NCBI GenBank assembly: GCA_020161015.1
Contig: JAIUOT010000056.1
Location: forward strand, 145,477 to 209,476
DNA from: Actinomycetota bacterium
Lineage (GTDB): Bacteria > Actinomycetota > Actinomycetes > Propionibacteriales > Propionibacteriaceae
Length of the DNA: 64,000 bases
Direction: 5' to 3'
Of the stretch, positions 51,918 through 60,379 are shown piece after piece. The notes under the pieces are model-generated. The model ran no database searches, had not been told where the DNA came from, and saw nothing but the letters and a program-made list of their open reading frames with translations. Each line of letters opens with the position of its first letter. The stretch's first letter is position 1. The position numbers and the translations under genes were made by a program.

Positions 51918-52148
51918 ATGGCAGGCCCTGCGATTGGCATCGACCTCGGCACGACCTACTCTGCGATTGCGATGCTGGGGGAGTCCGGTTCGCCGATGAT
52001 GCTGACAAATCGTGAGGGTGGCCGGATCACGCCGTCAGTGGTCTATTTCCAAGAGGACGGCTCCGTGCTGGTCGGCGAGATGGCAAAGCGCAGTGCGGCC
52101 GTCAACCCTCTCGACACGGTTGAGTGGGTGAAACGCCTTGCGAAGTAA
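51918..52148 (+). CDS. Hsp70-family protein, N-terminal segment (gene split by inversion)
   Basis: 76 residues starting IGIDLGTTYSAIAMLGESG (Hsp70 phosphate-1 motif), then NREGGRITPSVVYFQEDGSV, LVGEMAKRSAAVNPLDTVEW and VKR, at which point the next canonical residues (HMG) should follow. Instead the frame runs into LAK and a stop. The expected continuation lies on the other strand starting at 53024. ATG 51918 is preceded by CGAGGGGGGAG. The protein as read now would be a useless nucleotide-binding-domain fragment. Treated as part of one gene 51918-53427 interrupted by inversion. Confidence 0.9.
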   Translation: MAGPAIGIDLGTTYSAIAMLGESGSPMMLTNREGGRITPSVVYFQEDGSVLVGEMAKRSAAVNPLDTVEWVKRLAK

Positions 52149-53027
52149 CGTCCTTTACAACCAGGGGGGGGCGATTGTCGTCGCGGGCCGCTCGAGCGCC
52201 GCCTGGATCGCGGCACCGAGGGCAACCATCTCGTCGGGATTGCCGGCTCGGGTCGGCTTCTTCCCGCTGACATGTTCGATCATGGTAGCAACCATCGGCA
52301 TTCGGGTGGAGCCACCAACGAGCAGGATCTGATCGAGGTCGGTCCAGTTCAGCCCGAGCTCCTCGATGAGCGAAATCATCAGGTCGCGGGCCTGGTTGAG
52401 AAGGTCCGAGCTGATCTCCTCAAGGGTTTCGCGCGTCAGCGAGATGGTCCTGGTCACGCCTCCTCCGCTGAGCGCGACCTTCGTTGTGGTCGTCTGGCTG
52501 AGTGTTCGCTTCGCCGTTTCGGCACGCTCGCGGAGCCCTGCCTCGTCCTCGAAGCTCGCCATGAGGTCTATCCCGCCTTGCGCCTGGAACTCCGTGTTAA
52601 GCCAGATCATGACCCGGTCGTCCCAGTCCTTGCCGCCCAGCTCGTGCAGGCCGTCAGTCCCCTTCACGTCGAGGATCCCGCCGGACACGGTCATTACAGT
52701 GACATCGAAGGTGCCGCCGCCGAGATCGAAGACCAAGATCGTGCCGTCTCGCCCGCCATCAGCGCCGTAGGCGAGGGCCGCGGCTGTTGGCTCGTTGAGC
52801 ACACGCAGAACGTTGAGCCCGGCGATTCGGCCGGCATCACGCGTCGCGCGGCGTTTGGCGTCGTCGAAGTACGCCGGCACGGTGATCACGACATCGCTCA
52901 CCTGACCTTCACCGAGGTAAAGTTCGGCATCCTCCTTAAGGCGCTTGAGGATGATCGCCGATACAGTCTCAGGGGTGTGAACGGCGCCGTTGGGCGCTTC
53001 GAATCGCCAGTCCGGGTTTCCCATATG
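52138..53027. other. 890-base inverted segment inside the Hsp70 gene
   Basis: Left border: AAACGCC then TTGCGAAG (52137/52138). Right border: CCCATAT then GGGGCCTCGG (53026-53028). If the segment is turned round, the left joint reads GTGAAACGCCATATGGGAAAC, giving VEWVKRHMGNPDW, exactly the Hsp70 consensus. The right joint gives VVKDVTSQGLGTIAID, matching the VKDVTPLSLGIET motif, when the G8 tract (52164-52171) is read with one more G. Long flanking inverted repeats are not evident; only short GCC-type microhomology is shared. Confidence 0.85.
52155..53024 (-). CDS. Hsp70-family protein, central segment on the opposite strand
   Basis: 289 residues from MGNPDWRFEAPNGAVHTPET to a stop after IAPPWL. 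It contains the rest of the nucleotide-binding domain: VVITVPAYFDDAKRRATRDAG, LRVLNEPTAAALAYGADGG (connect 1), ILVFDLGGGTFDVTVMTVSGG (phosphate 2), ELGGKDWDDRVM and LVGGSTRMPMVATMIEHV (adenosine motif), NPDEMVALGAAIQAAL (connect 2). It is uninterrupted and shows no decay apart from the homopolymer-dependent frame at its end, so inversion is recent or reversible. The ATG at 53024 is an internal Met of the full gene. Confidence 0.88.
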   Translation of the reverse strand: MGNPDWRFEAPNGAVHTPETVSAIILKRLKEDAELYLGEGQVSDVVITVPAYFDDAKRRATRDAGRIAGLNVLRVLNEPTAAALAYGADGGRDGTILVFDLGGGTFDVTVMTVSGGILDVKGTDGLHELGGKDWDDRVMIWLNTEFQAQGGIDLMASFEDEAGLRERAETAKRTLSQTTTTKVALSGGGVTRTISLTRETLEEISSDLLNQARDLMISLIEELGLNWTDLDQILLVGGSTRMPMVATMIEHVSGKKPTRAGNPDEMVALGAAIQAALERPATTIAPPWL

Positions 53028-53427
53028 GGGCCTCGGCACGATCGCGATCGATTCTGACACGGACCAACAGCGAAACTTCATCATCATTCCGCGGAACGCC
53101 AAGATCCCTGCCAAATCGGCCGAGTCGTTCAGCACGGTTGTTGACGGCCAGACCGAAATCCGGCTCAGAGTCACGCAGGGAGATGACCCCGACCCGGCGT
53201 TCGTCAAGGAAATCGGTGTGCAGACCATCCCGATCCCACCTTATCCCAAGGGTGCCGGGATCGGGATCGAATACGCCTACGACATCGACCAGATCGTCTT
53301 CATAAGTGTCTACGACCTGACGGCCGAGAAGCTGATCTCGACCTTCGAGGTCTGCAACGAAGCGAACCTTGATCCTGAAGCAATTGAAAACGCCCATATC
53401 CAAAACCGGAACACCGAGGTGAACTGA
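53026..53427 (+). CDS. Hsp70-family protein, C-terminal substrate-binding segment
   Basis: After the inverted part the plus strand resumes the Hsp70 protein with GLGTIAIDSDTDQQRNFIIIP, RNAKIPAKSAESFSTVVDGQ, LRVTQGDDPDPAFVKEIG, IPIPPYPKGAGIGIEYAYDI and ISVYDLTAEKLISTFEV. This is a typical beta-sandwich substrate-binding domain. The helical lid is almost absent, so the full protein (about 500 residues) is a short, lid-less Hsp70, unlike housekeeping DnaK. TTG at 52990 opens the current frame, but it is inside the inverted part and probably not used. Two bases separate its stop from the J-like gene start. Confidence 0.85.
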   Translation, partial: WGLGTIAIDSDTDQQRNFIIIPRNAKIPAKSAESFSTVVDGQTEIRLRVTQGDDPDPAFVKEIGVQTIPIPPYPKGAGIGIEYAYDIDQIVFISVYDLTAEKLISTFEVCNEANLDPEAIENAHIQNRNTEVN

Positions 53428-53428
53428 C

Positions 53429-59806: not shown

Positions 59807-60072
59807 CGAGAGTTGAGCTGCCCCGCGGCGGCCAGGTCTTCGTTCAGGGAATAGCCCTCGGGGTCATGCGCGCGGAAGTCGTGGGCGAGACGTCGTTCGC
59901 ACAGGTGTTGGCGCGGTCGGTAGACCATGACGACCTGTGCACGCTGCGCGACGGCCTCCCCGCCCGGCTCTCGGGCGGGGAAACATTGACTCTGGTGAGT
60001 GTGAGCCCGACCCCTGACGGTGAACCCAGGGTCGTGCTCGAGCTGACCTCAGACCACAACCATTCAGATTGA
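59803..60072 (+). CDS. Small protein following the protease (candidate immunity or regulator)
   Basis: 89 residues with an alternating beta pattern: TRVELPRGGQVFVQGIALGV, MRAEVVGETSFAQVLARSVD, LTLVSVSPTPDGEPRVVLEL. No family recognised. ATG overlaps the protease stop by ATGA, so they are made together in set ratio, the pattern expected of a toxin and its immunity protein or of a protease and its inhibitor. This is inference from position only. Confidence 0.7.
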   Translation: MTRVELPRGGQVFVQGIALGVMRAEVVGETSFAQVLARSVDHDDLCTLRDGLPARLSGGETLTLVSVSPTPDGEPRVVLELTSDHNHSD

Positions 60073-60085
60073 GAAGGGAAACAGC

Positions 60086-60379
60086 ATGGGTTTCTTCACC
60101 AACTTCTTCGGTTCCACCCCCAAGATGCCGCGGAATCTCTCGGCCCGCCCGGCGCAAACCGTTGGTGCAGTTGTTGTCTCCGCTACCGATGGACCAATGC
60201 CGATTACCCTAAAGGAAATGCGGGACCTCGCGGCGACTGGCTCGACCTCGGTGCGCGTGCATCTAGTTGATGTGTCTCTCGTTGACGACGAGGAACTGGT
60301 CGAGTTGGTCGAACTCGAACTGCGAGCAATCGCCAGCGATTGCGGCTTCACGCAGGTTGACGTGGAATGGTACGCATGA
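60086..60379 (+). CDS. Small protein of unknown function, last cargo gene
   Basis: 97 residues: MGFFTNFFGSTPKMPRNLSA, then a compact alpha/beta unit (VGAVVVSATDGPMPITLKEM, VRVHLVDVSLVDDEELVELV, LRAIASDCGFTQVDVEWYA). The FFTNFFGS start could sit at the membrane. Not recognised. GAGAAGGGAAACAGC precedes the ATG. The end of the cluster; nothing follows for over 400 bases. Confidence 0.7.
   Translation: MGFFTNFFGSTPKMPRNLSARPAQTVGAVVVSATDGPMPITLKEMRDLAATGSTSVRVHLVDVSLVDDEELVELVELELRAIASDCGFTQVDVEWYA

What the first reader, a model, noticed from the sequence alone, without database searches (positions are those of the whole stretch)
51918..60379. Undescribed-looking cluster: Hsp70, J-like/TPR, GrpE, three-domain FtsK/EccC-like ATPase, coiled TM protein, small helical protein, calpain protease
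Seen: after the Hsp70 gene the genes run on one strand with overlaps of 1-17 bases, mobile elements on both sides and lower GC than the chromosome. Family knowledge: Hsp70/J/GrpE form a refolding cycle; EccC-type ATPases move small helical proteins and LXG-type effectors; calpain cores cut proteins. Inference: a chaperone-fed translocation or conflict system in which the protease is the effector and the short Hsp70 unfolds or holds it for the ATPase. None of the type VII membrane core genes is present, so it is not a standard ESX locus.
Basis: partly seen in the sequence, partly recalled or inferred. Interest (0 to 1): 0.95.

Follow-up and report, generated by a model that had tools for sequence, protein, structure and literature searches.

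The report
Chaperone-armed type VII-like toxin cassette
This stretch holds a cassette, found in the same gene order in unrelated bacteria, that sets an Hsp70 protein-folding trio beside a motor of the type VII export family and a protein whose calpain-protease tip is swapped for other toxin-like tips elsewhere; it likely exports toxins against neighbouring bacteria, and in this genome its Hsp70 gene is broken.

Summary
Its middle part is inverted and changes frame in a G-run; intact ~500-aa relatives exist. The association is real: Hsp70, J-TPR and GrpE genes sit beside this ATPase in 6 of 55 ATPase loci, including loci outside the class and a Rhodococcus plasmid, and 20 database contig lengths carry both proteins (control mean 0.21). 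The ATPase model has the EccC/EssC fold, no transmembrane part and one Walker A site. The 86-aa protein is modelled as a WXG100-like hairpin. The 'calpain' protein shares its N-terminus with proteins that end in ADP-ribosyltransferase or CdiA-type tips, so it looks like a polymorphic toxin. EccB and classical WXG100 genes were not found in this genome. The solo three-domain ATPase with WXG proteins is already in print as 'mobile T7SS', and a 'DnaK homolog' near such genes is tabled for H. pylori; the full chaperone trio is the new part in what I could search. The last gene (60086-60379) resembles a slice of EF-Tu and recurs in two related loci: a candidate target mimic. Chaperone-fed export, toxicity and immunity are inferred, not shown.

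The parts
51918..52148 (+). Hsp70, N-terminal piece (relatives' residues 2-72 match to 52136)
   Evidence: tblastn of six intact relatives and of the L021 Hsp70
52158..53027 (-). Hsp70, middle piece in inverted orientation, with a frame change in a G-run
   Evidence: no inverted repeat over 7 nt at the ends
53029..53427 (+). Hsp70, C-terminal piece (substrate-binding part; relatives have no lid)
   Evidence: an intact relative matches DnaK model positions 1-510 of 625
53429..54547 (+). J-like/TPR protein with a C-terminal membrane segment (372 aa), HPD motif not kept
54544..55044 (+). GrpE-like protein (166 aa with this start)
   Evidence: PF01025 E 3e-14; start choice
55051..57807 (+). EccC/EssC-fold ATPase: coiled coil 4-79, three ATPase-like domains, one Walker A site, no TM segment (918 aa)
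57804..58313 (+). Helical protein with one C-terminal TM segment (169 aa)
   Evidence: no family
58330..58590 (+). WXG100-like helical hairpin without W-x-G (86 aa)
58592..59806 (+). Predicted polymorphic toxin: conserved ~100-aa helical N-terminus plus calpain tip with Cys160, His336, Asn362
59803..60072 (+). 89-aa protein overlapping the toxin stop by 4 bases; candidate immunity protein
   Evidence: position only; no match
60086..60379 (+). 97-aa protein resembling EF-Tu residues 89-165, NKxD lost; candidate target mimic
48555..50315 (.). Left flank: ISL3-type transposase remnant (+) and IS110-type transposase (-)
60820..63878 (-). Right flank: two ISL3-type transposases

Best explanation
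The locus encodes a cassette of the solo-ATPase ('mobile') type VII kind, with an Hsp70/J-TPR/GrpE trio, an EccC/EssC-family ATPase, a one-TM protein, a predicted WXG100-like hairpin and a protein with a calpain-protease tip, and it is predicted to export that protein as a toxin against neighbouring bacteria, likely after the chaperones have held it in a loose state. Proposed order of events, all inferred: the J-TPR protein, anchored by its C-terminal membrane segment, docks the toxin; Hsp70, recycled by GrpE, keeps toxin and hairpin partner from folding or acting in the producer; the ATPase, gathered at the membrane by its coiled coil and the one-TM protein, pumps them out; one or both small proteins after the toxin protect the producer. 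Shown here: the genes, their recurrence and the exchange of tips behind one N-terminus; shown as models: the folds. In this genome the Hsp70 gene is broken, so the cassette would run on the housekeeping Hsp70 or is decaying.
For: Trio next to the ATPase in 6 of 55 loci (window, L021, L032, L085, L086, L096; L096 in another gene order) and 20 shared contig lengths against 0.21 by control. One ATPase branch of 14 rows holds 5 of 6 trio and all 7 J-only loci. EccC/EssC relation by profile, curated models under cut-off and fold (4nh0, E 5e-31). Hairpin model pLDDT 91 with EsxA/EsxB as best fold matches. Shared toxin N-terminus in 24 of 55 loci with tips ADP-ribosyltransferase (L021), CdiA_C (L026) and calpain (window).
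Against: 41 of 55 ATPase loci have none of the three chaperone genes, and three loci have the trio without the ATPase, so the coupling is not obligatory. 0 of 7 J-like proteins keep HPD. The Foldseek E-values for the hairpin are not significant (0.36 or more). No translocon gene is seen in the operon and no signal or channel is known for this ATPase type. The Hsp70 gene is broken here. Neither export nor toxicity was tested.
Confidence: 0.62

Rival explanations
1. Intracellular conflict or suicide system: the ATPase and chaperones gate a toxin that acts inside the producer, for example on phage infection; nothing is exported.
For: No translocon genes in the operon; ATPases of the CoCoNuT kind without TM sit in defence operons (PMC11090510, passages); GTPase-centred conflict systems also use HSP70, GrpE and DnaJ/TPR (PMC7159879, passages).
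Against: Immunity-like small genes next to tip-swapped effectors, a membrane anchor and a hairpin partner fit export better; PADLOC gave only ATPase-core and one weak BrxA match.
Confidence: 0.2
2. The trio is a general protein-repair module that travels with many genes; its place beside the ATPase is a hitch-hike.
For: Three loci have the trio without the ATPase (L068-L070); 41 of 55 ATPase loci have no chaperone gene.
Confidence: 0.12
3. The Hsp70 break is an assembly or amplification artefact and the real gene is intact.
For: Clean inverted segment without repeats at its ends, as chimeric joins can give (recalled); the genome is a 65-contig draft.
Against: The frame change recurs in a database piece of 100% identity listed with a contig of another length (P0121, 73,612 bp; window contig 209,476 bp); this does not test the inversion, and that entry may come from the same organism or reads.
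Confidence: 0.35
4. The Hsp70 inversion is a programmed on/off switch (phase variation).
For: A segment of about 0.87 kb is inverted with both outer parts in frame order.
Against: No inverted repeat over 7 nt at the ends; no invertase among the flanking genes scanned; six intact relatives compared have one orientation.
Confidence: 0.04
5. The EF-Tu-like gene is not immunity but a standing component or effector that engages partners of EF-Tu.
For: Slices also follow the small-protein genes in L022 and L094, where neither the shared toxin N-terminus nor a known tip in the genes scanned was found.
Against: In the window it is the last gene after the toxin, the usual place of immunity genes (recalled).
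Confidence: 0.4

Closest known systems
'Mobile T7SS': solo WXG proteins with a three-domain YueA-like ATPase of which only the middle domain is active (PMC3482391, passages)
   Same: ATPase architecture; small WXG-like partner; mobile setting
   Different: That footnote lists proteobacteria and other phyla, not this group; the paper's held text has 0 hits for chaperone, Hsp70 and DnaJ (first 300,000 characters)
EssC-like ATPase + WXG100 of CoCoNuT / TerY-P loci (PMC11090510, passages)
   Same: N-terminal coiled coil, no TM segment, WXG100-type partners, called a likely stand-alone secretion system elsewhere
   Different: Sits with VWA and McrBC-type defence genes; no J/GrpE trio in the passages seen
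Helicobacter pylori 'WXG100 secretion system' NCGC-5 (PMC4978471, passages)
   Same: Tables list a DnaK homolog, WxG100, FtsK/SpoIIIE and an HNH/ENDO VII nuclease in one neighbourhood
   Different: No J or GrpE named; in a Helicobacter plasmid relative (L035) no Hsp70 was found by Pfam in four upstream proteins
T7SSa (ESX) and T7SSb
   Same: EccC/EssC-fold ATPase, helical-hairpin partner, toxin with helical N-terminus
   Different: No EccB or PF06013 protein found in this genome; ATPase without TM
GAP1-N2 GTPase systems, HSP70 theme (PMC7159879, passages)
   Same: HSP70 + GrpE + DnaJ/TPR protein in actinobacteria and firmicutes
   Different: Centred on GTPase, GAP1 and FNIII proteins; no FtsK ATPase or toxin of this kind in the passages seen
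Cpe1/Cpi1 protease toxin and immunity protein (PMC12136450, abstract and passages)
   Same: Antibacterial cysteine-protease tip; immunity by competing with the substrate
   Different: T6SS/CDI-linked; targets GyrB and ParE; 'mimic' has 0 hits in that text

Membership tests
Type VII secretion (ESX, T7SSa) | EccB in the genome | tested here: not met
   No PF05108 match in own genome; 12 of 31 genomes in the call ring, but only 2 of 19 of the own genus, and some genus members with long EccC-like frames do not ring, so sensitivity is partial
Type VII secretion (ESX, T7SSa) | EccD, EccE, MycP | not tested
   No search made; none in the operon by Pfam
Type VII secretion (any) | EccC/EssC ATPase with several FtsK domains | tested here: met
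   Profile, model and fold; NCBIfam EccCa 84 bits against a cut-off of 509, so not a standard EccC
Type VII secretion (any) | TM segments in the ATPase | tested here: not met
   No hydrophobic segment
WXG100 family | Two-helix hairpin | tested here: met
   Model pLDDT 91; best matches EsxA/EsxB, E 0.36 or more
WXG100 family | W-x-G motif / PF06013 match | tested here: not met
   No motif; no PF06013 match in own genome
Mobile solo-WXG T7SS (PMC3482391) | Three HerA/FtsK domains, only the middle one active | tested here: met
   One conserved Walker A; three units in the model; activity itself not tested
Polymorphic toxin system | Constant N-terminus with exchanged C-terminal toxin domains | tested here: met
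   L096 and L028 tips are under the curated cut-off
Polymorphic toxin system | Cognate immunity gene next to the toxin | tested here: inconclusive
   Two small genes follow; no known immunity family
Calpain (C2) protease | Cys-His-Asn triad | tested here: met
   Cys160, His336, Asn362 in calpain motifs
Hsp70/J/GrpE machine | HPD motif in the J domain | tested here: not met
   0 of 7
Hsp70/J/GrpE machine | Intact Hsp70 gene in this genome's cassette | tested here: not met
   Inverted middle part
GAP1-N2 GTPase conflict system | GTPase, GAP1 and FNIII proteins in the operon | tested here: not met
   No such Pfam match among the operon proteins scanned
EF-Tu | Full-length GTPase with NKxD | tested here: not met
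   97 aa, about residues 89-165, NKxD lost

The most novel reading that the evidence does not exclude
A dedicated Hsp70 machine loads protease and other toxins into a type VII-like pump, and the producer guards itself with a stolen slice of the toxin's own target: the 97-aa EF-Tu piece is a decoy that keeps the calpain tip off EF-Tu, and such slices recur as a standing part of these cassettes in this bacterial family (window, L022, L094).
Probability: 0.18. Interest if true: 0.88.

Novelty: new variant of a known kind. Interest (0 to 1): 0.72.

Why it matters
If true, the type VII export family has a version with its own Hsp70-J-GrpE loading machine, packaged with swappable toxins and carried on plasmids and mobile segments. 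It would give a compact, testable system for the open question of how type VII substrates are kept quiet and handed to the ATPase. The EF-Tu slice would be a case of immunity by target mimicry that names the target from sequence alone.

Tried and rejected
Standard ESX locus: rejected. Chance neighbourhood: rejected. Phage origin: one scan of viral contigs found no relative; 25 phage records matched, 0 of them over 80% of the query, the ten listed only in the FtsK core. Phase switch: no repeats at the ends. The first EccB search was silent in its controls too and was repeated in relatives. The J profile searched in the family of G243 reached only 22 genomes. A hidden Hsp70 in the Helicobacter plasmid locus: not found by Pfam in four upstream proteins. 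EF-Tu slices in 364 class genomes: every printed match except the window's own lies in a frame of 300 aa or more (tuf-type), but the list was cut short, so rarity is not proven. The 89-aa gene matched nothing usable (as part of a longer frame, 79, 93). Literature searches; papers were seen as listings, abstracts or passages only, none as whole text.
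Full report
OBSERVATION. The operon was re-read from the DNA. J-TPR 53429-54547, GrpE 54544-55044 (start chosen from the overlap with the J stop), ATPase 55051-57807, one-TM protein 57804-58313, 86-aa helical protein 58330-58590, calpain protein 58592-59806, then 59803-60072 (89 aa) and 60086-60379 (97 aa). G+C drops to 62-68%, and ISL3 and IS110 transposases flank the segment; two ISL3 copies are 89% identical over 480 bp and inverted to each other.

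THE HSP70 GENE IS BROKEN. Six intact relatives of 501-502 aa (P0122-P0127) match in three main parts: residues from 2-4 to 71-72 on + up to 52136, a middle part on - between 53027 and 52158 (the tblastn piece runs on to 53237 in some), and residues 370/371 to the end on + from 53029 (the same picture with the L021 Hsp70). The inverted piece also changes frame in a G-run. The two ends share no inverted repeat longer than 7 nt, so a site-specific switch is unlikely. Decay and an assembly or amplification artefact cannot be told apart here. A database entry of the same broken piece (P0121, 248 aa, 100% identical) is listed with a 73,612-bp contig while the window contig has 209,476 bp; this supports the frame change but says nothing on the inversion, and it may come from the same organism.

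DOES THE ASSOCIATION RECUR? Yes. Loci with Hsp70, J-TPR and GrpE next to the ATPase: L021 (record titled Ca. Microsaccharimonas sossegonensis; ATPase 54% identical), L032 (plasmid of Rhodococcus pseudokoreensis R79, annotated Hsp70, TPR, GrpE, FtsK and four hypotheticals in a row), L085 and L086 (G608 and G727, same phylum but not same class), L096 (G813, own family, order J - Hsp70 - GrpE - ATPase). In 55 ATPase loci, chosen because they had an ATPase or J match and so not a random sample, I count trio 6, J 13, Hsp70 7, GrpE 6, small protein 36, shared toxin N-terminus 24, EF-Tu slice 3 (the profiles were built partly from these loci; short duplicate loci were dropped before the count). Against: three loci have the trio without the ATPase (L068-L070), and 41 of 55 have none of the three chaperone genes. 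Frequency in drawn genomes: ATPase at E <= 1e-40 in 53 of 394 class genomes and at E <= 1e-60 in 48 of 322 order genomes; J-TPR at E <= 1e-10 in 6 of 394; J profile in 5 of 396 phylum genomes, of which G454 is a partial match without the cassette and G180 has the trio without the ATPase.

An independent count: of the 59 distinct longest-contig lengths of the other Hsp70 clusters 20 occur exactly among the 119 other listed ATPase clusters, against mean 0.21 and maximum 2 in 400 shifted controls; 20 of the 39 nearest ATPases are covered. One search listed 120 of 425 hits, so both lists are capped.

TREE. In a maximum-likelihood tree of the 55 ATPases (quick method) one branch of 14 rows (SH-aLRT 96) holds 5 of the 6 trio loci, all 7 J-only loci and 2 without a detected chaperone gene, one of which (L022) begins at its contig end. 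L096 lies elsewhere on a long branch of unsure place. The trio label needs 4 changes on the tree, so it is not one clean clade: loss, gain or exchange has happened.

THE ATPASE. AlphaFold2 on 69 sequences gives pLDDT 91.5, a long helix at 4-79 and three ATPase-like units. No TM segment is seen. Best PDB matches are EccC of Thermomonospora curvata (4nh0, E 5e-31) and EssC; the profile search also gives EccC5 and YukB. One Walker A site is conserved. This is the architecture that PMC3482391 gives for 'mobile versions of T7SS' and PMC11090510 for CoCoNuT-linked ATPases.

SMALL PROTEIN AND TOXIN. The 86-aa protein is modelled as a two-helix hairpin (pLDDT 91, 10 sequences). Its best Foldseek matches are EsxA/EsxB with E-values that are not significant for so short a shape, and it lacks W-x-G. 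The calpain protein shares its first ~100 residues with L021 (45%), L032 (34%) and five other loci (25-29%). Tips over the curated cut-off: ADP-ribosyltransferase in L021 and CdiA_C in L026; under it: CdiA_C in L028 and ADP-ribosyltransferase in L096. The other tips scanned in these loci (L024, L025, L027, L029, L030, L032) have no family over cut-off. The calpain triad is complete. Bacterial calpains with WXG100 domains have been noted (PMC4631099, passages).

THE EF-TU SLICE. ORF 60086-60379 matches EF-Tu 89-165 (NCBIfam E 5e-11, 42 bits against a full-length cut-off of 452; PDB E 8e-10); Pfam shows nothing. It keeps SATDGPMP and the helix with VDDEEL-ELVE and has lost the NKxD of the GTP site. 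Similar proteins follow the small-protein genes in L022 (4226-4537; tblastn E 2e-5) and L094 (14582-14896); Pfam does not recognise either as EF-Tu, so their link rests on the profile and alignment, and no toxin tip was found there. So the slice may be immunity (decoy), or a component or effector that engages EF-Tu partners. The genome's own tuf gene was not found, probably a draft gap. CdiA toxins that need EF-Tu are known (PMC9086364, passages), and Cpi1 blocks its protease by competing with the substrate (PMC12136450, passages). Searches for EF-Tu mimicry by immunity proteins listed nothing of this kind.

NOT A STANDARD ESX LOCUS. EccB is not found in this genome while 12 of 31 searched ring, though only 2 of 19 in the own genus. 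PF06013 is silent here and rings in controls. Besides the cassette only one further, distant FtsK-like frame is found. EccD, EccE and MycP were not searched.

NOVELTY. The solo ATPase with WXG proteins is known. The H. pylori pan-genome paper tables a 'DnaK homolog' with WxG100, FtsK and an HNH nuclease (PMC4978471), so a chaperone near such genes has been listed before. A description of an Hsp70-J-GrpE trio with such an ATPase and polymorphic toxins was not found in searches of an open-licence library that lacks most subscription papers; the 2012 TerY-P paper was not held. Hence a new variant of a known kind. Mechanism, export and toxicity remain inference.

Noticed in passing
window 60086-60379; L022:4226-4537; L094:14582-14896: Small proteins of about 100 aa that resemble a slice of EF-Tu recur in three ATPase loci of one family; six further ones (P0183-P0188, 86-118 aa) come from metagenome-type sources.
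   Followed up: partly
L021:1-22694: In a Saccharimonadota record the cassette has 59-67% G+C up to about 16 kb and 42-46% after it, and its ATPase and Hsp70 clusters also bear the name Microbacterium sp. MRS-1: transfer between an epibiont and a host-like bacterium, or contamination of the MAG.
   Followed up: partly
L068, L069, L070: Hsp70, J-TPR and GrpE genes of the same kind stand together without the ATPase; an ISL3 transposase lies beside the L070 copy.
   Followed up: partly
L066:3827-8506: In G215 the ATPase cassette sits next to a 398-aa EF-Tu-like gene and an EF-G gene, a possible source of tuf slices (maps, 34, 105).
   Followed up: no
L023:7653-11310 and G243:C1:454098-456557: Other members are also broken: one ATPase is split by a transposase-like gene, one carries an in-frame stop.
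   Followed up: no
L024:13819-15264: Three look-alike small genes (152, 163, 105 aa) follow the toxin gene, like a row of immunity paralogues; seen by eye, not aligned.
   Followed up: no
L032:15496-16314: The Rhodococcus effector tip has H-G-N-G and C-S-T-G motifs that recall clan CD cysteine peptidases (recalled; Pfam found nothing).
   Followed up: no
window 50618-51172 (-): 184-aa protein upstream of the operon without any family.
   Followed up: no
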